From: Perkinsus chesapeaki
Taxonomy: Eukaryota > Perkinsozoa > Perkinsida > Perkinsidae
DNA length: 39,327 nt
Reading direction: 5' to 3'
NCBI GenBank assembly: GCA_013115145.1
Contig: JAAPAO010000326.1
Coordinates: 1 to 39,327, forward strand
Below the pieces are notes generated by a model. It was not told where the DNA came from. It saw only the letters and a program-made list of their open reading frames with translations, and did not search any database. The position numbers and the translations under genes are program-made. Shown here in pieces: positions 1,877 to 34,917 of this stretch. The first letter of the stretch is position 1, and each line of letters starts with the position of its first letter.

Positions 1877-4800
1877 AACCAAAGCAAGAAGACATCAGGA
1901 TTGAAACTCACACTGAGACCGTCGAGCCCGCCGATATCAAATCATTAGCTGGTAGCCAGGATGAATTTTGTGGCGCGTGACATTTCTTTGGGCAGGTTGC
2001 AAGTGGTTTAATATAGCGGTTCCTAAGCGAGCTCAGCGCACTGCGAAGGAATCTTCGATCGATTTGGATGCGCTCCATCTCGAGGCTGAGGAGCTCTACA
2101 ACTCGACGGTGGCCCGGTTTGAATCTTTGATGAAAAAAGATTCCGAGCAAGCTTGGTTGCGAAAGACTGTGAAGGTCGGAACTCTCTCCGATAAAGTGAC
2201 GGCCCTCGTGACCATGTCCCAATTCTGTCCGGCATTGGCGTTGCCACAGTTGAAGGCATTGATTGGAATGTGTGGGAAGAAGGCAGCAAGGGAAGCTCAA
2301 TTGGGTATTGATGCTGTTAAGGAGTTGATGGTGACGGAGTTCCTGCTGAAGGATAGGAAGCTTAAGAGCTGGTAAAACGGGGGACATCCGAGGGAATTGG
2401 AGTGAAAGATAGGGAGTGTATTATTGTGATTATGCTGGTAATTTTGGTCATTCCTCATTCCGCATTATTATACAATTGTTAATGGTATCCTGATCTATGT
2501 TGTTGCTGTGGAGACACCTTTAAAATTGTCAAGTAATACGTTGCAATTTCTCAGTATCACTTATAACATGGTTAGTTTATCTATCAATCATCAAACTTTA
2601 CGCATTTCATCTTCATCCGCATGAGGCCTCTCCGACCTTGGTATCTTAGGTTGGAGCATGTAAGATACACAAAAAGTCAACTCAGGTCCCAGCAACGCAG
2701 TGACTTATCGAATCTCCCCACGAAGCCCCATGATCGCCGTCTAGCATTGGTTCGAGCGTATTTCGAATCCGAGCTGCAAATTCTCGTGGCGGCTTTCGTC
2801 CAAATTTTGCATCGCGAAATCGTTCTCGGCGGAACTGTCGATGGATCACAGCAACATTTGAGAAAGAAGTGCTTGTCGGTTGCTTATGAGGTAAGAGAAT
2901 CTTTAGTCGTGAAATGCGCGCTTCAAGCTAGGATATTTTCAGTTACTGCATGCCCGTCGGGAGCAAGAACCAGCTTTACGTGCGATGCTCGTATCCGGAC
3001 TCACTACGAAGGATTCCAACGAAGCTGAAAGGTAACCTTGAAAATATCTTTGCAGTCTTAACGTTTTCCGAGTAGTCGGTGCCCCTTTATTCTTCATAGT
3101 GTACTGATAAGAAAAATATTTTTCCAGAAAATATTCCAAAATTTCCCAAAACTTTCGCCCTGTCAGATTGCTCCACAAATTGTTAAGAGAGCAGCCCCGT
3201 TTGAAAACTGATGTCGCGAAGGAGGTTATCGACCAGCTGATAGAGAAAGGTGAGAGCGTTATATCCTAGCGGAGCGAAGCGATTTGTGTTTTACATTTTA
3301 GGATCAGCAGAGTTGCAGGACCGTCGGGCTATGAATAACCTTTACCGGGGATGCGCATTCTTGTGCTCGATGAGACTTACACATACAGAAGATGGTATCC
3401 GCGCGTATCTTAGGTTGAAGCTTGCATGATAAATGTTAACTCAGGTGATGTCGCTGTCCTGATTGCCGAGACTTTCGCTAAGCTTCTGGAAAGGATGTTG
3501 TCGGACGATATGCAGGGCCCGAGCAAGGCTGTAGGTTAAAATGCCTTCGCTCGGAATCGAACCGACGACCGTTCACTTCAGGTACGACCAGCTCACCGAG
3601 GCAGCCGAATTCACAAGCGAAAGAAGAAAGGAGGAGATGGGCCAAATCAGGAGGATGTGCAACAGCGTCTCAGGATCGTCCGATTGTGTCTTAGTGGAAT
3701 GCACAAGGTGAGGTCATAATCGATCACGCGATCGATTTTGTACATATGATTTTTATTTATGAAAATGTATGTATCATTGACATATCTATAATGCGCTGTT
3801 TCATAAGCGCCTTGGTTCTCGCTCACGAGCGAGAACAAGTGAGCCTTGATTCGAGCAATTGGCAGCTATATCTTGATACTCTCAAAAGGAGTATTGAAAC
3901 ACATCTTAGTCAGTTCGTTGTTAAGATTTCTGTGTCGATCCTTTTTTCATATTTCCTCGCAATTTCTTCCCCCCCCCCCCACCAAAATTCGCACTTCCCT
4001 GCTGAAGGCTTTAAACGTGTATGTTCTCCGCGTATCCGCGGTTGAAAATAATTATATGTTTTAAATCCCAAACAAAAGACATTTCCTTTTTCTTCCCGAA
4101 AAATACAGCGCAAATTTCCTTCTGTGCTGCTGATGAGTTTTTCCAAATTTCCTAAGTTATTAATTCTCCTGCGGACTGTCGATATTAACAGTGTCAATTT
4201 TCAGGCCTTCACTGTAGCCAACGACTCTTTGGTCGAGGCGCGGTTGTCGGATGAAGCAATGAACGCAATACTAAGATTGTCTTATAGTAGAGGAACCGAT
4301 GTGCCTCCAGCTGCGAGTAATGCCGCTGTTATGTTGCTTATTGAGGTGAGGAGAATCTTTATCGATCATGTGATCGATTTGGTTTAGATTGCGAGAGCAC
4401 AGTCTAAGAATGGTGGATTTTCGACGGATGAGGAAAATGAAATGGAAGGAAGGTGGGAATTTACATTATCTTGTTCATCTTTTGAAGAGACAGACTTTTT
4501 CACGCCAGCCTTGCAGGTCGTTAAATCGTATTTATTTAGGGAAAATTCGATGAGAGTACGACGACGAGATGGTGGTGCTGTGTTCATTTCATAGTGCGAT
4601 CAACACATATTTTTTGTGAAAGTTCAATATTGAAGTACTTAACGAATTTGTCCATAGGTTTAAAATATAAATTCATTATTTACTCGCTACATAAGATTTG
4701 CCCACCGTGTAGATGATGAATGCCTACTGAAGTACGGCAAAAGGTGAAACGCTCCACCATTGAGGGCTCAGAGATTCTGGAAATGTATTCACTGGCGGTG

Positions 4801-7130
4801 GAAACGAAGAGATAAATTTCGAAACGAAATTTGATAAATCTAGGAGATTTCTCTCGACTTTATGGGCATCCCAAACTCGACGCTTGAATGTTGGGCAGGT
4901 AGCAAAAGTATCTGATCTTGTCGCATGCCGCATGAGACTATTTTCCTCTGCGTACGATCAATTGTGCAATTTGTCCCCTTTTAGGTGTTGGCGTGCGATA
5001 TACCATCACGTCCATTCTCTTGAGTCCCAATCAGCATCGAACTATATCCCATTATTGCAGATGGTTTGGGATCTGATGGAGGCCAAGTCGACCAAGCCAA
5101 TCCTCGCTGCTGCTACCTCTCGAAGACTTTTGCAATTAGGTGGGTTTACGTATCAAATCTGCCCCATGGCGGAGGAGTCCAAGGTTATCAACGATACGCT
5201 ACATTTGTCGAACAGGGAGATATCGACTCTGAAAATAATGCATTCTTTCCATGTATCCTTCCACCACGAACTAGCCGCTCGTCTCCTCGCAGCCTCGTGG
5301 AGTTTAATAAGTATATCGCATTTAAGCGCTTCGCCCCCTCCTCCTCCTCGGGATTGACCACCAACCTGTGCGTTATTTTCAGCATCAATGACAGTAGAGC
5401 CTGGCATGTCTGCCGTCGCCGAACACGCATTGGATTTGGCCGCTGAGCGATCAAACGAACTTCAGAAACTTATAGATTGGGACGTTGAGGATGAAGAGGA
5501 AGGCGGCGAAAAGAAGGTTTATGATCCTTTGGAGAGAGACCCTAGGTGAGAAGATAACTGCTGAAACGTCTCAATTTCGTGGCGCGTGAAGTATACGGAG
5601 TAGCACTGCGATGATGACACAAGCCTTATTATGATTGCTGGCATCCTTCTTCCCATCTCAAGTGAAGTTTAGAACTCCTGCTTTCATCTCAGTCACAGTG
5701 CGGCATTGAATGGTTCCAAGTGTTGCTGGGAGAGCCTGCCCATGGCGCATCACTTCTGCCCGGGGGTCGCCGATAAGTCTGGTATCTGCAAAACAGCTCG
5801 TGAAACTGTCGAATTTAACTCCTTCACGAAAGCCTTGGCCGGTTTGTGTATCAACGTGGAGGACCAAAACGAGGAAGAAGGACAAGTTGCACTGCCTTGT
5901 GTCTTGCGGTAGGCAATTTTGTGGCGCGTGACTTTTCGAGGTATATGGTGGAAATCGTTGTTCCATATTTGTTGAACTACTTGGTTAATTTAACCAAAGG
6001 TTCATTCGAATCGCAATAATGATTCAGCAGCGTGGTGATGCTGTAAATGCATTCCATATTTTGTGGCGCGTGACTTTCGCCATGTTTCGGAATCTAGTGG
6101 AGGTCTGTTCATTGATATGTCTTGAAGTCTGGAAAAAGAAATGACGGAGCGGAATTTCGGAACACCAAGCATCTAAAGAAGAAAGTGCAAGGATTATTAT
6201 GTATAAAATGTAGGTATTATAACGACCCTGTGGTGGTGGCGCTCCGAGAGGAACGTAAAAAGGCATCCGAAAGGAACAGGGAAGATTATGGTGCAATCGA
6301 TGAAAACGACGATGAGGAGGAAGAGTTCTTCGAGAGTGCTGCTAATGAAGAGCTTGGTGACGACTTGCAGGAAGGTGGGTACATAGTCTTAGCGGAGCGA
6401 AGCGGTTTTCGTTTGTCATTTTTGTGATTTAGGCGGGGAATCTGACGGGGAGGATGATGCATTGGCTGCTGCATTGGCGGAAGAGGGAAGTGATGACGAT
6501 TTGGGAGACTTTGATGAAGATGACGAGGGTGAGCTTCGGTGTCGAGCACGTCACGGTGATGGGGTTTATTTCGGGAATTCCGGACTGTTTTTTTCCGGCA
6601 ATTCTTCCGTCCTTGGAATAATGATTATATACCACTAATATATACTTAGTGGTAGCTCAACTTCATCGGGTATCCTCGTCAACTCTTGGGCGTATAAACT
6701 TCCTTGTCGCGCATCGATAGATGTTCCCACTTAGATGAAGAAGACGCTGCCGCATTCGCCGCCATGGACGGTATTGGTGAAGAGGAGGAAACGGAGGAGG
6801 AGGAAGAAGAAGAAGTAAGGTTGCGCAAATGATATTCTTCAACTTTTCATAAATAAGTTACAAACATTAAATTGACTTCCAGAATTGTGTGGTTCATATT
6901 TACAAAGATTAGGTTGTTTATAATTCATTCACTCAATCGATATTAAATATCTTCATAACTTTTAATAATCCTTCCCACCCTTTCTTCCCCTACAGGCTCG
7001 CCCGTCAAAGAATCCTCGAAAGCGTCTCCGTGAGCTCATGTCCGGCGGCGGCACCTTCGTTTCAGCTGATGAAGTGGCCGACCTTATCGCCGAGGATAAC
7101 AAGAAAAGTCGTAGCAGTCGCCACCATTAA
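1877..7130 (+). CDS. MAK21: Noc1/Mak21 (CEBPZ) ribosome biogenesis factor, 5' end unresolved
   Basis: Nucleolar protein needed for early 60S subunit assembly, where it forms a complex with Noc2. Exons that join in frame: 1877-1951, 1996-2371, 2686-2890, 2943-3031, 3167-3249, 3302-3394, 3445-3530, 3618-3707, 4205-4345, 4388-4452, 4985-5139, 5383-5545, 5693-5908, 6139-6374, 6433-6528, 6735-6814 and 6996-7130. Recognisable blocks: KWFNIAVP near the start; LSDKVTALVTMSQ followed by DAVKELMVTEFLLKDRKLKSW-like text; the helical repeat region; WRAIYHHV; the CBF/Mak21 block YDPLERDP then CCWESLPMAHHFCPGV; FRNTKHLKKK; a long acidic stretch; and a C-terminal GGGTFVSADEVADLI close to the conserved tail of the family. 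The loop after HHFCPGV is divergent. The intron 5909-6138 could hide a small exon. The true start is upstream and not settled. Confidence 0.9.
1952..1995 (+). repeat. Intron built on core family F1
   Basis: A 44-nt intron of Mak21 that joins ...LAG to CKWF in frame. It contains aattttgtggcgcgtgac (1964-1981), the F1 core. About 40% of the intron is core. Confidence 0.75.
2640..2685 (+). repeat. Core family F4 (inverted copy) at an intron 3' end
   Basis: The last part of Mak21 intron 2372-2685 carries ggtatcttaggttggagcat, then ends gtcaactcag. The core is the reverse complement of the F4 word found at 2911-2935. Confidence 0.6.
2891..2942 (+). repeat. Intron built on core family F4
   Basis: A 52-nt phase-0 intron of Mak21. 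It contains atgcgcgcttcaagctagga followed by tattttcag. The same word occurs in introns of the lipoate ligase gene (8503) and PIG-L (35571). Confidence 0.75.
3250..3301 (+). repeat. Intron built on core family F2
   Basis: A 52-nt phase-1 intron of Mak21 containing ctagcggagcgaagcgattt (3266-3285). A near-identical core occurs in the intron at 6375-6432. Confidence 0.75.
3395..3444 (+). repeat. Intron built on core family F4 (inverted copy)
   Basis: A 50-nt phase-1 intron of Mak21 containing cgtatcttaggttgaagctt and ending gttaactcag. The layout is like the 3' end of the intron at 2372-2685. Confidence 0.7.
3531..3617 (+). repeat. Intron holding an antisense tRNA-like sequence (family F6)
   Basis: An 87-nt intron of Mak21. 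Read on the minus strand, 3541-3613 has a TCGG/CCGA T-stem around TTCGATT, an anticodon-like loop CTGAAGT (GAA in the anticodon position) on an imperfect stem, and a D-arm-like GTGAGCTGGT. The acceptor ends pair badly, so it is a decayed tRNA-derived sequence and not a functional tRNA gene. Confidence 0.6.
3708..4204 (+). other. Long Mak21 intron with F3 palindrome and poly-C tract
   Basis: A 497-nt phase-0 intron that joins ...SGMHK to AFTVAND. It starts gtgaggtc and then has the palindrome aatcgatcacgcgatcgatt (3718-3737). A run of C residues lies at about 3970-3981. Short open frames inside it look non-coding. Confidence 0.65.
4346..4387 (+). repeat. Intron built on palindrome family F3
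   Basis: A 42-nt phase-0 intron of Mak21. Its centre is atcgatcatgtgatcgat (4361-4378), a hairpin-forming palindrome also present at 3718 and 9006. Confidence 0.75.
5573..5590 (+). repeat. F1 core in Mak21 intron 5546-5692
   Basis: The word aatttcgtggcgcgtga lies 27 nt inside the 147-nt intron that separates DPLERDP from the HHFCPGV exon. Confidence 0.6.
5909..6138 (+). repeat. Mak21 intron with two F1 cores
   Basis: This phase-2 intron carries F1 cores at 5915-5932 and 6058-6074, both as attttgtggcgcgtgactt and in the same orientation. The first sits in a potential 32-nt GT-AG unit (5909-5940) and the second in another GT-AG unit ending at about 6109. It may be two introns around a small divergent exon, or a nested or tandem insertion. 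Confidence 0.55.
6375..6432 (+). repeat. Intron built on core family F2
   Basis: A 58-nt phase-1 intron in the acidic region of Mak21. It contains cttagcggagcgaagcggtt (6388-6407), a second copy of the core at 3266. Confidence 0.75.
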
Positions 7131-7944
7131 AGTAGCGTCACTGCGCCACGAAATAACGTTTACCAACTTCCAACGTAAAGATACGCTTCTATTCATTGGA
7201 ATCTTTGAGTTGAGCAAGTTGTTAATGTGAAAAGGGGTAACAGTCGTGGAGTATCTTTCCTCTGCCATCCTCGGTCGTGAATTGCTATATAATATCGACG
7301 AGCTTTATTCTTTAATGAGATAACACACCGATTTCTCTTATCGCTTGTAGGCATACAAATTGTCTATATCTCAGATGTCATAGTGAAATCTATTCGGCTT
7401 GACCACACAAGATTTGTGCTAGTGGTGACCACATCGGCATCCGATGTGGCCTAACTCTGGTGTGTTGGCGATACGTGAAATCTCGAAATCGAGTGGCGTA
7501 ACGTCTCGAAGCGTGAGCCTTCAGAAGCCACGCCAATTCCATGCCCAAAAGTTACACGTTGGCGTCTTGCCAGTCCAAGTAATTCACTGAGTTCATCACG
7601 GCGCAATTCGGCGCCATGGGAGGTCAAATACAAATAACTAGCAGCTTATCATTCTCTCAGTCGAATTGACCTATTAGCAAAATATTATAGAACTCTGAAT
7701 CAGTTCATTACTGGATCTTAGCTGATTGCTGATCATCAAGGCTAACGTTCGATTGGTTTTCTATCCTCCAGTACTCCTATGAAGTGAATTCGTCTGCTTG
7801 GGAAAGTACATTTTGTCCCCGATGAGTTAGCAACTCAGAGTTACGTTGGATATCCCTTCCTATCTGTGTATCTGTGCCACTCTCATCGTCCAGTCGCACT
7901 TCCGGATTGTTCTTGCTTTCAGTTTTTTCTCAGTGCTGTTGTTG
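7131..7944. other. Intergenic or 3' UTR; one F1 core, no gene
   Basis: Follows the Mak21 stop. An F1 core gtcactgcgccacgaaat lies at 7137-7154 and begins just after a gtag at 7133, so it may mark a UTR intron or a decayed copy. No convincing protein is seen before the lipoate ligase gene. Confidence 0.45.
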
Positions 7945-21700: not shown

Positions 21701-21871
21701 ATGAGGGATCCTAAAAAAGCGTATAAGAGTTGGTACCAAATTGCGTGGTTTGGATACCCATTGGGTGTTTGGCTTACACATCCTCTCATTGCCCTTCGCG
21801 TACAGAGGAGCTTTCACTTCTACAAATAGGCACCAGACACCAGCAACGTGAGCAATCAAAGCAAAGTGCAT
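18787..21871 (-). CDS. Secreted cysteine-containing protein, paralogue B
   Basis: Minus-strand exons 21871-21758, 21308-21025, 20673-20606, 19196-19076 and 19033-18838 join in frame to 260 residues. It starts MHFALIAHVAGVWCLFV, a likely signal peptide. The body has PYANGRGAVDRGGFVRDKDK, YRGGTKEPIYR, FCIRLHEKHQKK, then PPEWCPLNWYHKRQVCWCMP and TCPEDKPYFFVP, ending in a Thr-rich stretch. The next gene on the same strand (22723-25165) is a clear paralogue with the same intron positions and phases. No known domain is recognised. Unlike the paralogue it lacks a C-terminal membrane helix. Removing a possible 42-nt intron near its end would bypass the TAG at 18838 and extend it to a TGA at 18787. 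The choice of first exon is the weakest part. Confidence 0.65.
19034..19075 (-). other. 42-nt intron of paralogue B
   Basis: On the minus strand it starts gtacgtgact and ends cattgccag, joining ...ATVKQR to TCPEDK in phase 2. The paralogue has a 442-nt intron at the same place. Confidence 0.7.
19952..19972 (+). repeat. (CAG)n microsatellite
   Basis: Seven or so cag triplets inside a long minus-strand intron of paralogue B. A short ata/taa triplet run lies nearby at about 20171-20186. Confidence 0.75.
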
Positions 21872-22722
21872 TGACGTTACAATCGCTGAAATGTGCCCGA
21901 TTAGTCATATCATTCTATCTCTGCGCATCTCTGACGGCCTAACTCAAATGGACTGGGTGAGCGAAAATGAGCCACAAGCATTATACATGGTCGAGGCTGA
22001 GGTTTAGAAATTAGCACTGAACCGGAAGCAAGCAATTAGCAGTTTAACTTGATAAAATACTGTCCTATTCAGATAACCATACAGCAACAAAAGGCTCGAT
22101 CGACAACGTGTCGCGACGTTTCGTCGAGCTGCAGTAAAATATTTTCTAACAAACTCTTATCTGCGCACTCCGACCATTAAGCAATATACATTTACGAGGC
22201 TCAATGATGAGCCCCACTACTAAAGATTATCTTTCGTATTATATACACTGTAAATTTATATTCTACATTATAGGTGTTGTGTTCTTTTAGTTCAGGCCCA
22301 CCACCAGTAACTTTTTATTGCGAATGAGTCAGGACTCGAGACTCATACCATTAGCACATACTATACTAGTATGTATAATGTAAATATAATAACAATGATG
22401 GTGGTGGTACTGCAATAACAGATCCACGAACCCTACCAATTCCTCCCAACTACGACATAGGTATCCTAAAAGTCTTATTATTACAAAACATTGTAATAAA
22501 CGACGAAATTGTACAGTAGATCGGTTTTCTGTAGAGAAATGTGATAAGACTACGACAGCATTAGGAATTGTTACTTATTCGCAAAGATACGTATTACACG
22601 CTTAAAGACTATAATAGCGATTTGGATTCGTAAAAGAATTACATTAACAAAACAAAACCAGAAGCGCTCCAGAAATAACAATGTGAACACTTCACACTTT
22701 CAAAATAGCGGCAGCAGCTCCC
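21872..22722. other. Spacer between the two paralogues, AT-rich
   Basis: No protein-like frame. It contains simple A/T-rich sequence and short ggt runs (about 22397-22408). It presumably holds the promoter of paralogue B and the 3' end of paralogue A. Confidence 0.45.
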
Positions 22723-25165
22723 TCAGTCCGATCGACTTCTCCTCGAGCTGGAGCCTCTCAGCCCCAAATATAAGATAATCGAGAATACAAGCAAGGCCGT
22801 AAAAATAGCGTTACGTCGCAACATGGCACCAACAGTGAATTCATAATCCCCTTCCCGAGGCGGAAGGGTGGGTGGTGGTGGCGAAGGAGTGGTGTAAATA
22901 TGCTCTTTTATCTGGGGCATTATGTACACTGGGCCATCTTTGGGGCACTCCCTGAGACGAGCTAATGCAGTAGTGACGGTAAACGCAAAAACTTATGGAG
23001 TCTGAAGAATTTTACTACATCATGGACCAATCGAAATCCCGAATGAGCCAAGGTTAGTGTTCTCAATACTATCTTGCAATAAGTTTAACGTTTCTCACTT
23101 TTGCTGTATGATGGAGGTTTTTTAGGTACGTAACAAATGATAGAAACCACTTCCGATGGATTCGAAGCCTTTCCGAATTTGACTATAACACTTCTCAAGT
23201 TCCCGCTTAGTTCACCTCGCATTAGCGCCTTAGGGAAGATCGAATCCGCCGAATTACAGACACTTAGGGCAATTATAAAAGGATCGATTTCCCTCGCGGA
23301 AAGCTAAATGTTTTCATACGCCACACTGACGTCACCTATCACGTACCGTTATTATATACGGTTAACATTTCCACGCCCTTAGCAAAGGCTTACCTCGGTT
23401 CATAATACGTATCTTTTGGCCCATCGCGGTAGTAACCGGGTAAACACCAACATGTTTGACGACGCTCATACCAATTGTAGTGACACCATTCTGGAGGATT
23501 CTTGTACGTGTACCCTAATGGGGACAAATTGCACAAAACAGCCTGCTCGCCACCAGCTCCTTACATGTTAGAAATAGAGACTGCACGTTGCCATGCTCGC
23601 AACTATTTTCTTGATCTATTCCATGTGGGGGCAGGTAGGTATACCGCGGATACCTCTCAATACACCTGATGCACCAGATGATGATGAAACTAACGCTTGA
23701 GGGGATATAATATATGTTATCTGTTTTCAGCTGCGGAGTATTGCTGGGAGTTAGCAGTCTCAACTAGTACGCTCCCCAATGCCACAGATTCACGCGCGAC
23801 TTCTTACAGCCAGTCTCGCTTGGTCGGATTCCCGCCGCCGGTATCTTTGGGGTCAGGAACGCACTCTGAAGAAAATATTATGCGAATATCTCAGGGAGCA
23901 CGGAGCGGTATATTCTTGACCGAGACCGGAGCGGTTCATAGGATACTGCACATATGAGTTCTAACTCACTGTATTTGCTGTTGGCAGCAAGAAGGTGCGT
24001 ATTCTTCTTGTGATGCTTTTCGTGGAGTCGAACACAAAACCTGACACTGAAACCATCATCATCCTCAGCTACTAGCCATACGGTAGCCATGCTATCACAC
24101 TACTACTATGATAGTAACTTTCAATAGCTCCATTTTATGGATAAATAATGGCAATTCTTGAATGCGCCTCGGCATTTCGTGACTCCAAATTTGCAAGGAA
24201 AATATTCTGTCTTTGGAAAATTACTGAAGATTCGCCGCGAAAGTCCGCCAAGATATAATTGTATTCTCCAACTATATTTTCACTACGTCCCAAGTGGACG
24301 TATCAAGTGTACTTTTGAATTCCCGATAAACACTTCTGTGGGGCTTACCTATAAATCGGATCCTTGACTCCGCCATCATAGTACTCACTGTGCTCCCACA
24401 TATCCGGCCGACAATAAGATATTTCCTTGTAGACATCCTTATCTTTAACTCTTCGCGGGATGAACCGGATACCTCCCCGTCCGTTGGCATACAGCGACAT
24501 ATTCACGTGATCGGTCGCCTTGATCACAATGGGCTCCCCTGAGGTGGGAGTAGAGTACAAATTTGAGTAGGAATAGATTTATGAAACAGTTGAAAACATC
24601 TCTACTGTTCTTACTAGGGTGTTACCCACGCTATTTCGTACACCTCATAATACACACCTATACCTGCTGCTCCCAGCTCAGCGCCGCGGCAGCTTGTCAC
24701 AGAAACAGAGACAACATTGTGTGCGGTAGATCTCATACTCATCCTTTTAATCATCGTATGAAATGTCTACATATCAGAATGGGCTCCAACTATTTATTTC
24801 GTTGCCTATGGATTATTGATGCCAGGTAAGGATAATATACAGATGGGAGAGTCATAATCTTTTCAGTGCAAATAGATAAGTTTGACGTGAGTCCGAGGCT
24901 TTTTAGTGACACTGAGCCATCAATTCATCATTTATCATTCATTCGTAACATAACACAGATATTCAAGCAAAGAATTCTGGTAGAGGATTTCCGAGTCGAA
25001 GTGAAGTCCATATCGCAACGAAAGAAGGCGAATAGATAATCTATCATCGACCCCACCACTGTTACATTCGTCTTTGTGGTCTCTAGGCCTTTTCAAGGCA
25101 TAAAACAGAGGCAACATAATAAAGAGTAGTCGAAGGAAGAGGGACCGAATATGACATCTCCTCAT
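22723..25165 (-). CDS. Type I membrane cysteine-containing protein, paralogue A
   Basis: Minus-strand exons 25165-25060, 24538-24349, 24046-23970, 23514-23394 and 22951-22723 sum to 723 nt, 240 residues plus stop. All phases agree. N-terminus: an Arg-rich start and a hydrophobic run (LLFIMLPLFYAL), a likely signal peptide. Middle: LYANGRGGIRFIPRRVKDKD, YDGGVKDPIYS, FCVRLHEKHHKK. Then a Trp/Cys cluster PPEWCHYNWYERRQTCWCLP and ECPKDGPVYIMP. A Pro-rich linker (TTPSPPPPTLPP) precedes a C-terminal helix (AIFTALLVFSIILYLGL) and a short basic Ser/Arg tail. The order fits a secreted ectodomain on a stalk with one membrane anchor. No known family is recognised. The first-exon donor (gtggtggggt) is the least certain junction. 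Confidence 0.72.
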
Positions 25166-26751
25166 AGGTTATTACGAAGCTGAAATGCTCTCGGTGTTTT
25201 TAGTCGAATTTAGTCTTTCAAGAGGCTGAGATAGCTCCGGTGCTTTTTGCAAAGTCTCACAATATACAACACCGGGTGTGTTATATTCTGAGATTTCGGG
25301 GGGCCCTAAACACTCACTCATTGGTGGCGCGGGAAGCACCAGAAATTAAACACCACGTACTGACTTAAAAGCCATCTAAGCACAAAAATGAAGATACCTC
25401 CGCCGAGTCCGGTAACAGTGGCTTGAGTGACACTTATGGCGAATGTGAAATCCAACCACACCACGCTGAATGCAGATTTGCAAAACGTGTTGGCTTTACA
25501 TTACACCGTGATTGGAGGGGAAATGATAGTTCACGTAAATGATGATCGATTATGGATGGTTACAGATTGAGGCGAGACATATTTGGGGTACATGTTCTTC
25601 ATTGACAACTTAAAAACTATAAGTAAATAGAAATGTTGAATTAGTGATGATATGTCGAAAAGCTTGCACATAATATACGCTTCGCCTCCTCGATACAATT
25701 CAATCTCGGCACACATGACACGCCTCGACGAGGTTGCTCCCTTCTTGAAGTCGAAGCAGCATCGTGAACCTGACATAGGAGGGACCGATTTAATACCGGC
25801 CAGGAAGAGACTTTGTTCAGTTAGGTGTCCTAGATGCACCAAGCGGATTTGTATGTAGCAAGTATTGTAAAGGGTGATATTTTCTAATATTATTCCTCTA
25901 TAGCTTTCCCGTTTTGAAAAATAGACGATCCAGGAAGTCAACTACCCGCACAGAAACACAGAGTTGAGATGGTGTAGATTCGCATGCAGGCGCGCTCCCA
26001 ATGTTGAAACAAACACAAAGGCTTCTCGTCGAATCTATCGTTTGCAATTCTCTGACGGACTCTACTTCCACCGATTCCAATTCGAGGCTTTCCGGAAAGA
26101 GAGATCGGTTAGCTCAACGGCGATCATCAAGGCTCCCCGAGATCATTTCCAATCCGTTTCAAAGGTCCGTATTCTAGTTTAAATATCGGTTACTTGTTCT
26201 CCTACAAGAGAGTGTGTACGTAAACAGACCCCTTCTGCCACCGGAGCAGCCTTCCTTCAAACAAGGATGGCAGGTCATCAAAGTTTGGGGGGTCAAAGAC
26301 AAGGAATAGCCTTATCCCCAACAAGCCATTCGGTTGCCGGAATAGTATCGCGCAGGCGGATCCTTTTTCAACGAAAATCCAAATTAATCGGGTAGAACAT
26401 TTCTCTTTGCGCAACCGTAACTTGAATATCGAAGCATTGATTTATATAACAATGCATAGAACACTACGGAGCTCATGAGATGGTGACGCCTACTCTGGAT
26501 TGAGAATTCTCACGCGTCACGAAATTCCAATGGCCCTTTCTTCCGCATTCTCAGACTGTGATCTACAGTGATGCAGATGCATCAATACGTCAGCCTCCCA
26601 ATAGCCATGTAATGGACACACCAATATATCCTATAGGCTGACAACAATTAACATGTTTTAAGGTACTGGGAGGAGGAGACACACGGTAGTACTAAATATT
26701 CCCAAATGCACTAGACGCTCATCAAGAGCATTTTCGTGGCGCGCGACTTAC
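25166..26751. other. Unresolved; possible exons of a third minus-strand gene
   Basis: Minus-strand open stretches include CCFDFKKGATSSRRVMCAEI at about 25770-25711, LELESVEVESVRELQTIDST at about 26086-26027, and a stretch ending at 26202 with RLFLVFDPPNFDDLPSLF. They could belong to the gene whose first exon is at 26865-26752, but junctions could not be set. A weak F1-like word lies at 26512-26527. Confidence 0.3.
26735..26751 (-). repeat. F1 core at an intron 5' end, minus strand
   Basis: On the minus strand the intron reads gtaagtcgcgcgccacgaaa. This is the F1 core directly after the donor, in the same orientation relative to its gene as the copy at 34685-34703. Confidence 0.65.
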
Positions 26752-27203: not shown

Positions 27204-28199
27204 ATGGCTCGCGCTTTTTCCATTTGCTGTTCCCGCGCAGCCTCCGCTGTCACTGACTCTTATACACCTATTTTTAGTTTTTCGGAGCCATTTTGCGCTC
27301 CCAGAGAAGACATGACTGCTGGCCTCGTCACCTCATCACAATTGCTTATACCGTGCCTGTCTCGGCATTCCTCGGCGGCAACAACCGAAATTGATGATTC
27401 TCCCTACAGTGAGTGTGACACGCCCTCGACCGCGCTAGAGGCATTGGACTCTTGCTATAAGATCGGTACGGCGATCGCCTCGGGAGCCTATGGACGAGTA
27501 AATAGATCCACCAAAAGAGAAACGGGGTGTCCAGTAGCAATTAAAATGATCGAAAAGCCTGCCTATGACTCTTGGTCTGATGACTGCGTTGATGGCTCGG
27601 CTGGTCACGGGCCTGGCGAAGCTGAAGTCCTCGAGTTGATATCGAAACTGAAGGTTGATGGTGTTCCGAGGATACTTGACGTATTCGAGGATTCTGATGC
27701 GACCTTTATAGTGTCCGAACTGGGCGGGCTTGATCTCTATGAATGGCTTCAACGGACTGAAGAACGACAAGACGCTACTGTGGTAGATGTTATGACGAAA
27801 TTAATAGTCATTCTTGAGGCACTACACGGTTGGGGTATCGCCCACAATGACGTTAAGCTTGAAAATATCTTGCTTAACGATTCGGGGGAGGTCCACCTTG
27901 TCGATTTCGGAAGCTCCGTTGTGTGCCATTGTGACCATCACGAAGGTGTTCGTCGAAGAGTCCTCGAAGGTGATGATGGCTCTTGCTATTCGGGCAACTG
28001 CTCTGATGATTGCTTCATGAGGTTCTGCGATAGCGACTTCCAGAAGTGTTCGATTGTTATGTATCAGCTCTTCACCGGTTTACCGATTCCCTCCGAGGAG
28101 GCTCGTGTTAACAGGGTGCCCGAGAAAAAGGCTGCGCTAAGGCGGGTCTCCAAGGGCGAGATTTTAACGGCTGATGAGGTTCGTGGGCTTTTTGAGTAG
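27204..28199 (+). CDS. Protein kinase, intronless, degenerate activation segment
   Basis: A Ser/Thr-type protein kinase fold of 331 residues in one exon. The first 80 or so residues are Ser/Cys-rich and have no recognised domain. The glycine loop is ASGAYGRV (92-99) and the VAIK lysine is at 114. A Glu for the salt bridge lies among 139-144. The catalytic loop is HNDVKLEN (214-221), with Asn in place of the Arg of HRD, and the metal-binding DFG is at 234-236. Beyond it a Cys/Asp-rich stretch (241-283) replaces the usual activation segment, and no APE motif is visible before the MYQLFTGLPIP helix. The three core catalytic residues remain, so activity is possible. Alternative: the 3' end may splice from about 28181 into the frame that starts GLFEGPHFG at 28234, which would give a more usual end to the kinase domain. 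Confidence 0.8.
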   Translation: MARAFSICCSRAASAVTDSYTPIFSFSEPFCAPREDMTAGLVTSSQLLIPCLSRHSSAATTEIDDSPYSECDTPSTALEALDSCYKIGTAIASGAYGRVNRSTKRETGCPVAIKMIEKPAYDSWSDDCVDGSAGHGPGEAEVLELISKLKVDGVPRILDVFEDSDATFIVSELGGLDLYEWLQRTEERQDATVVDVMTKLIVILEALHGWGIAHNDVKLENILLNDSGEVHLVDFGSSVVCHCDHHEGVRRRVLEGDDGSCYSGNCSDDCFMRFCDSDFQKCSIVMYQLFTGLPIPSEEARVNRVPEKKAALRRVSKGEILTADEVRGLFE

Positions 28200-28420
28200 T
28201 AATATTTACGTTACTGATCTCCATTCTATCCAGGGCCTTTTCGAAGGTCCTCATTTTGGTAGTGTTAGTCGAAGCTGTTGTAGACTTCATCTCGCATTGC
28301 CTTTATTTTCTGTCTGCTCTGATCGTACTATTCATATCTCTGATTATCGTCGAATACTAATAAGTCCACTACTATTCACCTTTTTCTGCAATATTAGATG
28401 GATTTAGTTGCAATAGGGTA
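28200..28420 (+). other. Possible alternative 3' exon of the kinase
   Basis: An acceptor-like ctatccag precedes GLFEGPHFGSVSR at 28234, which fits the LxxHPFF-type end of a kinase domain. The frame stays open to about 28407. Splicing from the GAG before gttcgtgg would replace the RGLFE end. Confidence 0.35.
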
Positions 28421-28748
28421 GAAAGATACTCAGAGGTTAAATTGTACAAGATACTTTGAGGTTAAAATGTACAAGATACTTTGAGGTTAAATCGTGGAAG
28501 ATACTTCAAGGTTAAGTTGTACAAGATACTTTGAGGTTAAATTGTGGAAGATACTTTAAGGATAAATTGTAGAAGATACTTTGAGGATAAATTGTAGAAG
28601 ATACTTCGAGGTTAAATTGTAGAAGATACTTCGAGGTTAAATTGTAGAAAATACTTCGAGGTTAAATTGTGGAAGATACTTCGAGGTTATATTGTAGAAA
28701 GATATTATTAAGGCTGGATTCTAGCAAGACACTTTAAGGTTAAATTCA
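28421..28748 (+). repeat. Minisatellite 1, 25-bp unit
   Basis: About 11 tandem copies of a 25-bp unit (aagatactttgaggttaaat plus tgtag), followed by two decayed units. Variants cluster: ttgagg, ttcgagg and aggataa forms occur in neighbouring copies, as expected from unequal exchange. Confidence 0.92.
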
Positions 28749-28865
28749 TATCCTATCATTCCTCTTCGGGTTTAGCGTAAGTTTCGGTGTGGAAAAAGGA
28801 ACGCGCTTCGGATTGAAACGACGGCAATGAGGAGATGGGCACATAAGAAAGTGGTCACGACGTCA

Positions 28866-29072
28866 CCGATAAGATACTAAATAGGTTAACTTGTCTAAGA
28901 TACTAAATAGGTTAACTTGTCTAAGATACTAAATAGGTTAACTTGTCTAAGATACTAAATAGATTAGCGTGTTTAAAATACTAAAGAGGTTAACGTGTTC
29001 AAGATACTAAATAGATTAGCGTGTTTAAAATACTAAAGAGGTTAACTTGCCTATGATACAGAATAGGTCAGT
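28866..29072 (+). repeat. Minisatellite 2, 26-bp unit
   Basis: About 8 tandem copies of a 26-bp unit (aagatactaaataggttaac plus ttgtct). The unit shares aagatact and ggttaa with minisatellite 1, so the two arrays are related. The array ends some 12 bp before the Ulp1 start codon, so it lies in the 5' UTR or core promoter. Confidence 0.92.
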
Positions 29073-29084
29073 TTCTCTTCGTTC

Positions 29085-30200
29085 ATGAGTACGTCCGAAG
29101 TCCTATCCATTCCGTCCTCATCAAGTGACAGTGACTCTTCATCATCGCAGCCCTCCACCTCTCGAATGGACATTCGGTATCGGAGTCATGTACTAAGTCA
29201 GAGGGACGCGGAGCTCCTCGGCCCCGGCGAGCTGCTCAACGACAACCTCATCGGCTTCTTCCTGGACATCTTCACGAGTGTCCTTGGTCAGGACTCCGTC
29301 TATGCATTTTCAACATTTTTCTTTACGCAGCTGGCTCAGAAGGAGCTCGCTAATGGCTGGGAAAGAGTAAAAAATTGGACCAAAAATGTTGATATATTCG
29401 CTCACGATTTGCTGATCTTTCCGATCAACGAGGCGAACCAGCACTGGTGGCTGATAGCGGTGATACGACCGAGATCGCTCATTCGACAAGTGATAGGCTA
29501 TCCACAAACTGAATCACCACCCGGGAAGCTGCTGATCTTGGATTCTCGCGATTGTGAGCTTCCAGAGGAGAAGAAAGTTCTATCGTTCCTTCACCAGAAG
29601 GCTGCAATCACTGTAGTGTGGTATCTCGGTAAAGTGTATTTGGAGACGTTCGGTATGCCGGAGGAGTCTCGCTTGAACAAAAAAAGCATAAACGCATCCT
29701 TGAAGCACATAGCGCTCTTTCCCGGGGAGCATCATCCCAAGCAGGATAACGAATATGACTGTGGAGTATTTCTGTTGGAGTTTGCAAAACGACTATGTGC
29801 CGGGCGGGAGAATCTAGTGAGGCGGAAAGAAATCACGGAAATGTTTTTGGCTGAAGATAACGGTGTATTGGCGTTTGGGCAGCGGACGGTATCGAGGAGA
29901 CGGAAGGCTCTGAGGAAGTTGTGCAGCAGCAGGTGGATGGCTCGAGGAGGGGACGTGGAGAAGGATCTGTCGTCGGCGATTGGTCGAAGGATATTTTTGG
30001 AGTCACTTGGAAAGCCCGTGGAGAAGCCTCAGGGAGGGTTTACGGAGGGGCTTCTGGCGGAGAAACGACGGAGGGAAAATAATGAGAAAAAAAGAGAAGT
30101 AGGAAAATACTTGGCGAAAAATTTGGCGAGCTTATCCGAACGGAAACGGATAAAGGAAGGAGCGGTATCGAAGAATAAGATGGCACGGGTGCGCAAATGA
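29085..30200 (+). CDS. ULP1: Ulp1/SENP-family SUMO protease, intronless
   Basis: A C48 cysteine protease that matures SUMO or removes it from targets, typically nuclear or at the nuclear pore. 371 residues in a single exon. It has a Ser-rich N-terminus, then LNDNLIGFFLDIF and YAFSTFFFTQL, the substrate-groove motifs. His120 is in NEANQHWWLIAV and Asp153 in LLILDSRD. Gln220 and the nucleophile Cys226 are in PKQDNEYDCGVFLLEFAKRL. The catalytic set is complete. The C-terminal 100 residues are strongly basic (KRRRENNEKKREVG, ERKRIKEG, ending MARVRK), which suggests a nuclear localisation or nucleic-acid-binding tail. ATG 29085 is the first in frame after minisatellite 2. Confidence 0.92.
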   Translation: MSTSEVLSIPSSSSDSDSSSSQPSTSRMDIRYRSHVLSQRDAELLGPGELLNDNLIGFFLDIFTSVLGQDSVYAFSTFFFTQLAQKELANGWERVKNWTKNVDIFAHDLLIFPINEANQHWWLIAVIRPRSLIRQVIGYPQTESPPGKLLILDSRDCELPEEKKVLSFLHQKAAITVVWYLGKVYLETFGMPEESRLNKKSINASLKHIALFPGEHHPKQDNEYDCGVFLLEFAKRLCAGRENLVRRKEITEMFLAEDNGVLAFGQRTVSRRRKALRKLCSSRWMARGGDVEKDLSSAIGRRIFLESLGKPVEKPQGGFTEGLLAEKRRRENNEKKREVGKYLAKNLASLSERKRIKEGAVSKNKMARVRK

Positions 30201-30469
30201 GCATGGATTCGAAGACTAATCAGCTTGGGAAGGCCACGGTGGAGAGATAGTGAGCTTACGTATTCATAGCTTTTGTTGCGTTTAATGGGTCTAGAGGCAT
30301 GTGTATTTGGACGTAGCTACCCTACTCCGAAGTTCCACCACTATTAAAGCTCATCTTGGATGAGATGGCCAATGATCATCAGATTCCCTCTGGCGGAGGT
30401 GATGAATAATCCGCTGCCTCTTTTGAGATACACCATTTGAAGATGTAATTTGCATTGGGGGAAAGATGC
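30201..30469. other. Spacer after the Ulp1 gene
   Basis: No gene recognised. It holds the Ulp1 3' end and the presumed promoter of the next plus-strand gene. Confidence 0.4.
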
Positions 30470-33400
30470 ATGGAATCTCGCAATTTATTTGAAGTTAATA
30501 TGTGACCAGCTCCAGTGGTGGGGGGCAAGTTCTCCTCGACATTGCTGGTTCAAGTGATGACGACAGGGGCTTATCTTATTCCCACAGCAGCTGGGAATCG
30601 CTATACTATTTATCATTGCAGTTTTTGGCACGTCCATGTCTGCCTCGTCTGTCGTCAGCCAACCTTACCACGTTAAGAGGCGGTATGCAGCTACACTTGG
30701 ACCGGGGAGATGCCTTTTGTAATAGGGAATGGGTAGCGTTCAATCATCAAGTTCTTTTTCATGGCCCAACTATGCGTGTCAACATTGCTTTGAATTATAC
30801 GCTTGTGTATCATATTGTACGCATACCGCTCATTTTATTATACTCTCTCGAGGATTCAACAAGGCAATTTTCACAGAATTATTTTTAGCCACTTCGTGTA
30901 TATAGACCTCATCGGGTGATGCTGCAGATGTATCTGCAAGCCTCGCCGGTCCTGTCAGTACCTCCATTAGCGCTGGAAAATGCCAAACTTTTTCGGGAAA
31001 AACATTTTTTCAGCTATGAAGACGCAGATGCCCTGCGAGTTCAGGGAGCATTCAACAAGCAAGGAAGGGAAATGGCTGAGGGAATGAGACTGTAATAAAC
31101 GAGCGTCACTGCGCAACGAAATTACTTCTCGCTCAGGTCTGTGCCGCGGGCACAACCGATGTTGAATTACATGCCGGTGGGGGAATGTCGAGAAGATGAG
31201 GGGATTGTAAGTATGAAGGAGAGGAAACAAACAGAGGACAGTAAGTTAACCTATCTTTTATCTTACCTGCTTAACGTAAAGATACCTTTAGATAACCAAA
31301 TGTCCGCGAAGGTGTCCTCAGAGGAGATCAGTGCCAGGGAGATGGAATTGCGCAAAATGTCGGAGAGGCCGTCGCCGTGGTCGCTGGTTGATAAGGAGCA
31401 ACACAGGAATCCTGTTTTGAGGTCATAATGGCAAAATTTTCGGAAAATATTTTTCGACGAAATTTTTGCTGAAAGATGTCTGCGGAGCCTGAGGCTTTCC
31501 CTTATCTGGAACGGATGCAGGGGAAGTCAAAGTTCAGGAAAGGTGTATTTTTATCGGGAAACTTTTAGGTAGGATATCCTCCCTTGGAAATCGAGGAGAT
31601 TTAAGTTCAGATAAGTTAAGATTCATTTTATTATATTAAACACTCTGATGGGCAATGAATTTGATGGAAATAGGTTGAACATCGGCAGGGGGAGGGGCGG
31701 GCTCGCAGGGTTGGAAATACGGCATGCGCGTTATTAAAGTTTGTTAGGCTTCATGAGGAAATATGGACATTCGCCGAGCACCAGCTGCTCACCTCGAAAG
31801 CCACTAGAGTTGAGTCTGGAAAAATGGCAAAGAGAATCGCGGATGAGGTTAAAAGATGCTATCGTGTGCATGCGTGCATACCGCTCTCAGGTGGAATCAT
31901 GTCTGAGGTCAGATCAGCCGTCGACTACATCGGCAAAGAAATGGTCGTCGGTTCGACCGTGTGGACTTTACAGTCTGGGTAGCTCGGAAGGGTGACAGGC
32001 ATTCGTCTAGCTTCAGGGAAATATGTTACTAATGCGGAGACGGAAATTCATTTAGAAAATTTTCCGGGCAAAAGGCGAAATGAGGCTGCATTATATCCTT
32101 TCTGGGATGGTTATTAATTCTTCTCTGCAGTATTCCCGACAGAGGGGGCACGGCTCTGATTGGGAGTTTATGGATTCAAAATTTTCGATCCACTTCCGTT
32201 GTATTTGACGTACTAGATGTCCCGCTTGTCCCAGCTTGCGTGGCGGAGGCTGGAAAAATGCGCTCACTGTGGCTTGTGATTGCAGTAGGAATCTTCAGTG
32301 CGAAAAGATATCTTTCAGGTGTTGGAAATCTGAATGAGAGAGACAATTATTGCATCGAACTCTACGTGGAAAATATTCCGAAAATTTACACCAAAAGTGG
32401 ACGGGCTGTGGTGAGGGCGGGCTCCTCCTCCGCAGCAACGACAGGGTAAGCCTATTTTTGGGGCGCGCGAGAAATCCTCCCTGCTCGTAAGGTTATGAAA
32501 ACATTACGAAGTAATAGAGAAAGTGACATTTCTCGATTTCTGTCGATGCTTCTAGGGAACATGAAGCTTGAGTGTCACTGCGGAAGTTCACAAACGATTC
32601 TGGGTGGAGGCACGGTCGAATGGCGGAAAGTCACTATGGGGAGGATTAGTTCATCGGCTGATCACCAACATGAATTTGATATATTGTGAACCATTTCTCC
32701 GATCTGTCCGTTTCCCGTGGTACGATGTTATTTTTCCGTTCAATGCCGACGCTAAGACGATCAGAGTGATGTGAGTGAAGGGCATGAAAAATGTTCCTCA
32801 TTTTCCTCAGGAGTGGAGGAGATAGGGCGGCAGAGGGTCTGATGTCATGCGCGGCCCGACTGGTGTCACATCTCAGCGAAGTTGGCTTACTGCTCGACAG
32901 CAATGAGGAAAAGAATAAAGTCACTGTGGGTAGGGAAATCTTGAAATCTTGTTAAATCTTGCATTTCCTTAACAGTTAAGTGTGGATCCATTTTGACTAC
33001 GGGAATTCTATCGCCGGTTATATTTTTCACGACCACCGCGCCTGGTGGGCTGAAGTGCGCCATTTGGTTGAACGCAGATGAGGCTGATGGAGTCACTCGA
33101 GTGACGAAGAAAAATATATCGGAATATCCAGCGTTGTTGCCATTGTAAGTTTGGGAACTGGAAAAAAGTCCACATTTGAAAACAAGTCTTCCTGGGTGCT
33201 GAGAGTTATCGAAATTATCGTCAGAAATACTCCAGTGCTGCGGGATTCGAGAATCGGTCGGTCAGGAAACTTCTCGGGACAAATGTAATCTGAAAAATTA
33301 AAGGTTTGGTTGTTTCACGCGTCAATGGTTCTGAGTGGAAGGAGGATATCCAATTCATGTGATAAACAATTCCCCATTGCTTCCTGGTCGACAGTCAAGA

Positions 33401-34788
33401 GGTATTTGACAAAATTATTTTCTTTCATTTTTTTCACCGACTGGAATTTCCCTTGAGTTTTGACACTGGCGGTTTTCGTCTTAGTTTTACTGACATCGTT
33501 GTAGATAGTAATATATATATCGTATATTATAATTATTATTTTTCTATATTTCTTATTAGATCCGCGAGGATCTAATTCAGTTAGCACCGAGCTGCATGTT
33601 TAAAGTGCTTCCGAACTCTGCAAATCTTCTCTTCACTTTATTCCACTCAGGTTTGCGTTTACCTCCTCATATCTCACTCAAGCAGGATTGCTATCACACG
33701 ATGGTCGAGCACAATGCTTGGATAAGTAAGCTTCATTATCTCCTAACTCAAGCGCAGCACCATTAAATCTCTTCCTCTCAGTTATGCCCTAATTTCCCTC
33801 ATCAACACGTTCCTGCGCGACCAGGAGAGATCGGCCTCGCAGGAACTCACTAAATCTACGGCGGCGTTTGGCGACAATAGTAAACCCGCGTTCACCAGTA
33901 TGAGTTTGGGCCACTTGCTTTGGGAGTTTGCGAAGTAAGTTGAACGTTTCAAGAGGGGTAAAAAAGTCCGGTCAGGTCGTATAGTAGAGATATTGATGAA
34001 AACGCCGATGATGGTGCAGATGACGGTAAGCTAGAAATGTTGGTTGTGGGCATCGAACCTGTGCCCGTTCAGGGAATATGAGAAGGTCGAGCAAACGACA
34101 GTGGCTCCTGCCGTGGTTGGAGAATCTTATTGATCTTACCGAGCAGCTGTCCAATTTCAAGGAAACTAAGGCAGCGTTTGAGTATATGTATGCTACATTA
34201 AAGTGAGTTCATTGGAACGCGTATCTTTCGCACTGTGAAGATTTTCAATTTCGAAGACGACGTATCTTTGCGCACTATAAAGATTCATCGGCTCCATGAG
34301 GGGGCGTACTTTGGGATTTTCTCTTATCAGGCATCTGTTCAAGTCGCCAGAAGTGAGGAAAAACCGTAGTTCCAGCTTGCTAGTTCCGTACTTGCTTGAG
34401 CCTCCACACGACAAGAGTTTGGTGGTAAGGAGTAGCCCCGCATGGAAGGAATACGGTGAAGGCAGAGCACTTGGGGGGAGAGGTAGGCTGTCATTCCAAA
34501 GGCTCACGTTCAAATCCTGGCGGGGGTATTTTAGGTCTTACTGATTATTATCGCGAAGAAAGTCGTCGGCGATTCTCGGAGGTTCGGAAAATTCGGGCTG
34601 GATTGAACGAATCTATTAAGTTGTTGATGGCTCATCCCAGCATGGCTACATGGTGGTTGCCGACTAGGAAGACTGAAGTGAGTTGTCACTGCGCCACGAA
34701 ATTAAAGAGGTTGCTTTAGAGCCGGAAACGGGTGAGAGAGGAGTCGAGGGGACCGCCGAGCAAGAAGGCTAATGGTGGCAAAAAGTGA
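30470..34788 (+). CDS. Unidentified conserved-looking multi-exon protein
   Basis: A large plus-strand gene with a mostly closed splice chain: 30889-31091, 31137-31240, 31292 to about 31413, about 31476-31548, 31740-31978, 32131-32445, 32567-32770, 32811-32925, 32981-33144, 33651-33725, 33782-33934, 33985-34025, 34073-34202, 34331-34424, an exon ending 34677, and 34720-34788 (TGA). The start near 30470 and the joints at about 31413-31740 and 34425 are weak. Segments that read as folded protein: LHEEIWTFAEHQLL, VFDVLDVPLVPACVAEAGKM, VHKRFWVEARSNGGKSLWGG then LVHRLITNMNLIYCEPFL, NYALISLINTFLRDQE, WLENLIDLTEQL. It ends with a basic tail, SRKRVREESRGPPSKK, that looks nuclear. I do not recognise the family. 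Confidence 0.6.
31092..31136 (+). repeat. Intron built on core family F1
   Basis: A 45-nt phase-2 intron containing gcgtcactgcgcaacgaaat (31103-31122), the F1 core in the orientation opposite to the Mak21 copies. Confidence 0.7.
34026..34072 (+). repeat. Intron with antisense tRNA T-arm-like sequence (F6)
   Basis: A 47-nt phase-1 intron. Its 3' part, gtgggcatcgaacctgtgcc then cgttcag, matches the reverse complement of a tRNA T-arm region (GGTTCGA type). Confidence 0.6.
34203..34330 (+). repeat. Intron with two tandem F5 cores
   Basis: A 128-nt intron carrying cgtatctttcgcactgtgaa (34220-34239) and cgtatctttgcgcactataa (34261-34280), each followed by gatt. Each core can fold because atcttt pairs with aaagat. 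Confidence 0.65.
34678..34719 (+). repeat. Intron built on core family F1
   Basis: A 42-nt phase-0 intron: gtgagtt, then the F1 core gtcactgcgccacgaaatt (34685-34703), then aaagaggttgctttag. Nearly half of it is core. The duplicated exon pair downstream has an unrelated 55-nt intron at the same position. Confidence 0.8.
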
Positions 34789-34830
34789 GAATGACGCGCG
34801 CGAGGGTTTCACTTTGAAGGGGAGAATTGC

Positions 34831-34892: not shown

Positions 34893-34917
34893 GTATACTA
34901 ATTCGATCTAAAATATT

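What the first reader, a model, noticed from the sequence alone, without database searches (positions are those of the whole stretch)
1952..34719. Intron core family F1 (gtcac-n-gcgccacgaaatt) recurs in introns of unrelated genes
The core occurs in introns at 1964-1981, 5573-5590, 5915-5932 and 6058-6074 (Mak21), 31103-31122 and 34685-34703 (unidentified gene) and 26735-26751 (a minus-strand gene). A further copy lies at 7137-7154 just past a stop, with weaker ones at 26512-26527. The host introns at 1952, 31092 and 34678 are only 42-45 nt, so the core is a large share of the intron. It occurs in both orientations relative to the host gene. Repeated near-identical introns in unrelated genes are the hallmark of introners, mobile elements that create introns, and the sharing is hard to explain by common splicing signals.
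Basis: partly seen in the sequence, partly recalled or inferred. Interest (0 to 1): 0.9.

Follow-up and report, generated by a model that had tools for sequence, protein, structure and literature searches.

The report
Short DNA motif in tiny introns
The clam parasite Perkinsus chesapeaki carries hundreds of copies of one 18-19-letter DNA word, concentrated in tiny introns of about 45 letters in unrelated genes and in both directions; it looks more like a docking site for a DNA-binding protein than like an intron that copies itself.

Summary
The window is a contig of Perkinsus chesapeaki. Genome-wide one length variant has 218 exact copies; the variant with one extra A has 236 with at most one mismatch; backward-read controls: 0. 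The annotated proteins splice out the five F1 introns of two window genes, three sense and two antisense. Five more host introns interrupt conserved proteins without a gap at the junction.

The introner reading is only partly supported. The introns are not near-identical: only about 18-22 bp are shared, 3-32 nt from the donor and 4-35 nt from the acceptor. Terminal inverted repeats are not in excess; no duplication flanks the core.

The core's edge preferences are similar in sense, antisense and non-intron copies and one position tolerates A and C but hardly T, as in a protein-binding site. It is about 8 times denser in short introns than in intergenic DNA; several other short families share that habitat. 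Against me: an excess of GT-starting downstream exons, and a sense bias. The binding protein is inferred.

The parts
1952..1995 (+). 44-nt intron of the Mak21/CBF gene (FOL47_005886); F1 core 1964-1981, sense
   Evidence: frame; annotated protein P0121 and P. olseni P0122 run through the junction; core
5546..5692 (+). 147-nt Mak21 intron with sense F1 core 5573-5590 (GTGAA variant)
5909..6213 (+). 305-nt Mak21 intron with two sense F1 cores, 5915-5932 and 6057-6074
7137..7155 (-). F1 core (A-containing variant) just after the Mak21 stop codon, antisense to the gene
26731..26747 (+). F1-like core, 2 mismatches, in a predicted 121-nt intron of a minus-strand gene, so antisense to it; not otherwise supported
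26509..26525 (-). weak F1-like copy, 2 mismatches; predicted exon, no supported intron
31092..31136 (+). 45-nt intron with ANTISENSE F1 core 31105-31123
   Evidence: model; annotated P0126 (MAEGMRL-SVPRAQP) splices it; P. olseni P0127 is similar on both sides but about 3 residues longer at the junction
34678..34719 (+). 42-nt intron with ANTISENSE F1 core 34685-34703 (exact)
   Evidence: annotated P0126 TRKTE-SRKRVREESRG and P. olseni P0127/P0128 PTEPSRKRGREESRG
36779..36795 (+). F1-like copy with 2 mismatches inside coding sequence of the PIG-L gene; probably chance
2372..2685 (+). Mak21 intron carrying family F4 (GTATCTTAGGTTGAAGC..AAGATAC) at 2641
2891..2942 (+). 52-nt Mak21 intron with an F4-related motif (match at window 8497)
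3250..3301 (+). 52-nt Mak21 intron with family F2 (TAGCGGAGCGAAGCG...TTTTACATTTT)
3395..3444 (+). 50-nt Mak21 intron with family F4
3531..3581 (+). 51-nt Mak21 intron with a tRNA T-arm/B-box-like block (F6), antisense; best outside match L020:8897-8929, score 15
3708..4204 (+). 497-nt Mak21 intron with palindrome F3 (AATCGATCACGCGATCGATT) at 3718
4346..4387 (+). 42-nt Mak21 intron with palindrome F3 at 4360
6375..6432 (+). 58-nt Mak21 intron with family F2

Best explanation
F1 is a sequence-specific DNA motif of about 22 bp, (not A)-A-A-T-T-T-Y-G-T-G-G-C-G-C-[A]-G-T-G-A-C-(G/T)-N-T, that works as the docking site of a DNA-binding protein. It is kept by selection and is housed mainly inside very short spliceosomal introns, where a fixed DNA word can sit inside a gene without altering the protein because it is spliced out. 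It is one of at least five short families with the same habitat. It is not itself an intron-making transposon. SHOWN: the motif, its numbers, its introns, both orientations, its enrichment in predicted short introns, its tolerances. INFERRED: that a protein binds it at the DNA level, that selection holds it, and why introns are the preferred place.
For: Positions that both fetch patterns left free show specific preferences: -2 avoids A, +1 is G or T, +2 is any base, +3 is mostly T (119 copies with at most 1 mismatch). The 71 copies outside sense introns show them too: not-A 69 of 71, G/T 63 of 71, T 40 of 71, so they do not depend on transcription direction. In the first 100 of 284 genome matches listed, 99 have the standard layout; there the position after Y is G 71, A 16, C 11, T 1 (C against T p = 0.006), unlike what neutral decay of a G should give (inference). 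The share of C at Y does not differ between the two length variants (p = 0.52). Hardly any longer shared flank: 3 of 8001 pairs reach 14 of 20 identities on one side. Copies cluster: 10 pairs within 2 kb among those 100, against 1.6 expected. Short-intron enrichment: 14 of 44 copies (up to 2 mismatches) against 19 of 368 random stretches masked in the same way (p = 6e-7). A sister family, F3, is a perfect palindrome around CACGTG (294 sites with at most 2 mismatches, control 0), as dimer sites often are (recalled).
Against: Sense bias in short introns, 29 to 11 (p = 0.006), is not expected of a purely DNA-level site. Excess of GT-starting downstream exons (19 of 40 against 59 of 257, p = 0.0018) and of boundary direct repeats of 4 nt or more (25% against 12%, p = 0.04; at 3 nt or more not significant, p = 0.21) hints at an insertion origin. 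The two length variants differ at +1 and slightly at the position after Y (G 33 of 40 against 36 of 57, p = 0.043), which could mean subfamilies. A general binding site should be common in promoters; here intergenic density is low. Class labels come from a home-made gene finder, trained partly on the same sequence, that found 12 of 16 Mak21 introns exactly and predicted 17 there. No binding protein was identified. Copies were fetched by near-exact patterns, so constancy of the core's centre proves nothing; A at -1 and 0 was fixed by the pattern in the A-containing variant and is free only in the other (78% and 79%).
Confidence: 0.48

Rival explanations
1. Introner relic: whole introns of about 45 nt were inserted by a mobile element, perhaps at GT sites; the intron flanks have since drifted and only the core, held by function, is still recognisable.
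For: Host proteins align without a gap at the junction in the five cases tested (of 19 predicted host introns, chosen because the protein was recognisable), so the intron is an addition and no coding sequence was lost. GT at the downstream exon in 19 of 40 against 59 of 257; boundary direct repeats of 4 nt or more in 25% against 12%. F2, a sister family, is sense-only in introns (5 of 5), and in window 3250-3301 its similarity runs on to within a few nt of the 3' splice site. Median length 45 nt against 44 in other short introns: no lengthening, as insertion into an existing short intron would give.
Against: Almost no similarity outside the core in 127 copies; no excess of terminal inverted repeats; 59 of 119 copies placed outside introns; similar edge preferences inside and outside introns.
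Confidence: 0.22
2. RNA-level splicing signal: F1 in the pre-mRNA recruits a splicing factor or offers a branch point (GTGAC) to tiny introns.
For: 29 sense to 11 antisense in short introns; a 27-nt predicted intron (L056) is little more than F1 plus splice sites.
Against: Antisense copies sit in spliced introns. The motif's edges look alike in copies outside sense introns. TGAC or TAAC words are not among the enriched words near the 3' end of 492 other introns. Distance to the acceptor ranges from 4 to 35 nt.
Confidence: 0.14
3. A tiny (18-22 bp) insertion sequence that drops into existing introns and intergenic DNA.
For: Dispersed, both orientations, narrowly limited shared block.
Against: No flanking duplication at the core; short F1 introns are not longer than others; asymmetric tolerance at one position; no longer parent copy among 127 copies.
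Confidence: 0.08
4. Fragment of a tRNA or tRNA-derived SINE: the A-containing form resembles the 5' end and A box of a tRNA (TGGCGCAGTG; recalled consensus).
For: One related copy reads TGGCGCAGCGGTCA (L020 intron 7532-7592); a T-arm/B-box-like family F6 exists in introns.
Against: The A is missing in 57 of 99 listed copies; flanks are random, so no B box at a fixed distance; Rfam and ARAGORN found nothing in the window.
Confidence: 0.05

Closest known systems
Introners (Gozashti et al. 2022, PMC9860276; seen: outline with abstract, sections 8 and 15, and a word search)
   Same: Sequence shared between introns of unrelated genes in one genome; opposite-orientation pairs allowed; aquatic organism.
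   Different: Their method requires similarity to begin within 5 exonic or 10 intronic bases of both intron boundaries (section 15); F1 similarity stops 3-32 and 4-35 nt short of the ends, so most F1 introns would be filtered out as interior repeats. The word Perkinsus does not occur in the main text.
Introner elements of Amoebophrya (PMC7789003; seen: section 10 and passages)
   Same: Repeated introns in a relative of Perkinsus; short direct repeats at the boundaries there, a weak excess of 4-nt boundary repeats here.
   Different: Theirs are non-canonical introns with 8-20 nt inverted repeats at their ends; non-canonical introns there average 120-240 nt. The short F1 introns are modelled as GT-AG, 27-62 nt, without excess terminal inverted repeats.
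Intronic binding sites of transcription or architectural DNA-binding proteins (general knowledge, recalled)
   Same: Graded, orientation-free motif, clusters of copies, similar profile in introns and outside.
   Different: Preference for the tiniest introns rather than promoters; no protein identified.
Short introns of Perkinsus marinus (PMC3101222; seen: passages)
   Same: Introns of 39-1622 bp, most under 100 bp, GT/AG.
   Different: The passages seen describe no shared motif.

Membership tests
Introner | Similar sequences in introns of unrelated genes | tested here: met
Introner | Similarity extends to both intron-exon boundaries (whole intron is the element) | tested here: not met
   core 3-32 nt from donor and 4-35 nt from acceptor in 40 short introns; flank information near zero
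Introner | Target-site duplication or terminal inverted repeats | tested here: inconclusive
   No duplication at the core and no TIR excess, mean longest stem 3.35 against 3.35 in other short introns and 3.1 shuffled; but GT downstream exon 19/40 against 59/257 and boundary repeats of 4 nt or more 25% against 12%
Introner | Presence/absence of the intron between relatives or paralogues | not testable with these tools
   I found no other Perkinsus DNA in the tools used; only proteins of P. olseni; tandem gene copies in the window too diverged
Protein-binding DNA motif | Position-specific, orientation-independent tolerance, alike inside and outside sense transcripts | tested here: met
   with the exceptions at +1 and after Y between length variants
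Protein-binding DNA motif | A protein that binds it | not testable with these tools
   needs a binding assay
Splicing (RNA) element | Sense orientation only | tested here: not met
   11 of 40 short F1 introns antisense; four antisense introns supported by annotation or conserved proteins
tRNA/SINE fragment | A box followed by B box at a regular distance, or a longer parent copy | tested here: not met
   flanks random in 127 copies; no Rfam match in the window

The most novel reading that the evidence does not exclude
The tiny introns of Perkinsus are kept, or were made, as removable docking sites: each carries one word from a small catalogue of DNA motifs, so that genes hold protein-binding sites inside coding regions at no cost to the protein. 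Between 1877 and 7128 of Mak21 all seven introns of 42-58 nt carry such a word (F1, F4-related, F2, F4, F6, F3, F2; the F6 match scores only 15). Against it: across 225 non-F1 predicted short introns only 32 (14%) had an outside match of score 16 or more in a 263-kb sample (shuffled: 0 of 248), though rare families would be missed in so small a sample.
Probability: 0.2. Interest if true: 0.85.

Novelty: new variant of a known kind. Interest (0 to 1): 0.6.

Why it matters
Why introns persist in small genomes is an old question. A genome whose shortest introns are enriched for a few short, constrained DNA words would give a directly testable reason (introns as removable sites for DNA-binding proteins) or, if the introner relic is right, a glimpse of old intron gain that boundary-based introner searches would discard. 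Both readings can be separated with P. olseni and P. marinus genome assemblies.

Tried and rejected
Whole-intron mobile element: rejected as it stands because only the core is shared. Branch-point supply: GTGAC, TGAC and TAAC are not among the enriched words near the 3' end of other introns. tRNA origin: ARAGORN and Rfam found nothing in the window; the three tRNAs found in 20 loci were only printed. My first view of a whole tRNA in intron 3531 was wrong: the annotation ends the intron at 3581. A microexon at 2626-2640 in my first model was also wrong. Tandem gene copies at 18.8-24.6 kb were too diverged for an empty-site test. Mutual information between positions: a few of 120 pairs reach p below 0.01, among them length variant with +1, so independence is only approximate. 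The A-containing form of F1 has no exact match in the viral or prokaryote collections (0 and 0). The 201-bp loci give unreliable class labels; they hold 60 of the 119 copies, and grouped them with the motif unmasked (67 in introns there, 60). That the predicted-exon copy L014:5208 might lie in a 32-nt intron is only my reading by eye. Masking the motif could favour intron calls; random stretches masked alike fall in short introns in 19 of 368, F1 in 14 of 44 masked and 16 of 44 unmasked. Literature: Perkinsus with introner returned only the Amoebophrya paper; Perkinsus chesapeaki with intron four papers, seen as listing only; 'Perkinsus, intron, motif, splice' 60 papers, 12 listed. None of the listings seen describes this motif; subscription-journal papers and preprints are not held.
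Full report
What the window is. The Mak21/CBF gene of the window is annotated there as FOL47_005886 on a 39,327-bp contig. The own genome held is 35.4 Mb in 884 contigs.

Is the core real. In the window it is found at all the stated places, two of them with 2 mismatches. Genome-wide, TTTNGTGGCGCGTGAC has 91 + 127 exact matches and AATTTNGTGGCGCAGTGAC has 112 + 124 with at most one mismatch; the same patterns read backwards give none. A pattern with free gaps, AATTTN{1,3}TGGCGCN{0,3}GTGAC, gives 284; of the first 100 listed, 99 have the standard layout, with spacer none 57, A 40, G 2. An exact scan for the A-containing form gave nothing in the viral and prokaryote collections.

Are the introns real. 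Mak21: my reading of the frame and the annotated protein agree at the three F1 introns, and the P. olseni protein (79% identity) runs through those junctions without a break. Two of my other introns were corrected by the annotation. The second gene: the antisense F1 introns 31092-31136 and 34678-34719 are spliced out in the annotated protein P0126; P. olseni proteins fit, with a length difference of about 3 residues at the first. Whether the annotation rests on RNA reads I could not see. Elsewhere, of 19 predicted host introns of up to 75 nt, I tested five in recognisable proteins: a DDX41-like helicase (antisense F1; gapless over 139 residues), glutamate synthase small chain (antisense; gapless over 80), a CHD1-like helicase, DNA polymerase delta and CPSF3, the last three with gaps further away but none at the junction. 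So in these five the intron is an addition to the gene, and no coding sequence was lost. A sixth test, HslU, is withdrawn (see tried and rejected).

Where the copies lie. I trained a simple gene finder on the fetched sequence; with the settings used it recovered 12 of 16 Mak21 introns exactly, with 17 predicted. Motif positions were given no coding score when genes were called. Of 119 copies with at most one mismatch, 60 fell in introns (45 sense, 15 antisense), 20 in predicted exons and 39 in intergenic sequence; 60 of the 119 come from 201-bp loci where calls are weak. In the 20 loci of about 10 kb and the window, 14 of 44 copies (up to two mismatches) lie in introns of 62 nt or less, which make up 4.7% of the bases. 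Random stretches masked in the same way do so in 19 of 368 (p = 6e-7). The loci were taken in contig order from the pattern listing, without regard to class.

What is shared between copies. Little but the core. Flanks carry little information beyond positions -2 and +4. In 40 short F1 introns (29 sense, 11 antisense) the core lies 3-32 nt from the donor; the middle half of the lengths is 42-49 nt, and the median is 45 against 44 in other short introns. No duplication flanking the core was found and no excess of terminal inverted repeats. This does not fit the rule of the introner survey that similarity must begin near both intron ends (PMC9860276 section 15).

Why a binding site. The edges are graded and interrupted: -2 avoids A, +1 is G or T, +2 is any base, +3 is mostly T. 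The 71 copies outside sense introns show this too, so it belongs to the DNA rather than to the transcript. At the free position after Y, G/A/C/T are 71/16/11/1; neutral decay of a G would not favour C over T (inference). The share of C at Y does not differ between the two length variants (p = 0.52). Copies cluster within 2 kb (10 pairs against 1.6 expected among the first 100 listed). Against this: +1 depends on the length variant, the position after Y does so weakly (p = 0.043), the sense bias is 29 to 11, and GT-starting downstream exons are twice as common as in other short introns.

Not alone. Comparing 289 predicted short introns with one another gave several further clusters. Against the whole 263-kb sample, 37 of 230 short introns counted as non-F1 have an outside match of score 16 or more; five of these are F1 introns whose core was cut by trimming, which leaves 32 of 225 (14%). 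Shuffled: 0 of 248; long-intron pieces 4.4% of 205, intergenic 7.7% of 479, exon 3.1% of 520. Genome counts: F3 294 sites with at most two mismatches (control 0), F2 338 with at most one (control 7), F4 267 with at most one (control 1). F3 and F3b copies in the sample are all in predicted introns (15 of 15); F2 5 of 7 and F4 6 of 9. F3b shares its first half with F3 and may be the same family. In Mak21 between 1877 and 7128 all seven introns of 42-58 nt carry a family member.

Verdict. The introner label does not fit the anatomy of F1. The best-supported reading is a DNA motif under constraint that lives in tiny introns; an old introner origin of those introns is not excluded and has some support.

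Noticed in passing
L111-L115 (starts of contigs C805, C1, C511, C876, C802): Five contigs begin with the same stretch of about 72 nt that contains an F2 motif, then diverge; in four of them a second F2 motif follows. Either an assembly artefact or a shared end sequence.
   Followed up: partly
window 28373-28722 and 28844-29097: Two minisatellite arrays with 25- and 26-nt units, both containing AAGATACT followed by a GGTTAA-like word.
   Followed up: no
window 3531-3581; L046 694-740; L029 3638-3680; L020 5279-5322: Short introns (the last three predicted) built around a tRNA T-arm/B-box-like block; in three of these four it lies antisense; the window copy has a partial match over 33 nt at L020:8897.
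   Followed up: partly
window 30600-36900: The annotated protein P0126 seems to fuse the C-terminal part of one gene (ending near 34784) with the PIG-L gene; P. olseni proteins P0127 and P0128 end where the first gene ends.
   Followed up: no
window 18800-24600: Diverged tandem gene copies on the minus strand with exons in the same order (34-58% protein identity by exon).
   Followed up: partly
window 3250, 6375; L020 7384, 9041; L028 6696: Family F2 is sense in the introns counted (5 of 5), and its similarity runs on through a T-rich stretch towards the 3' splice site; a better introner candidate than F1 in this genome.
   Followed up: partly
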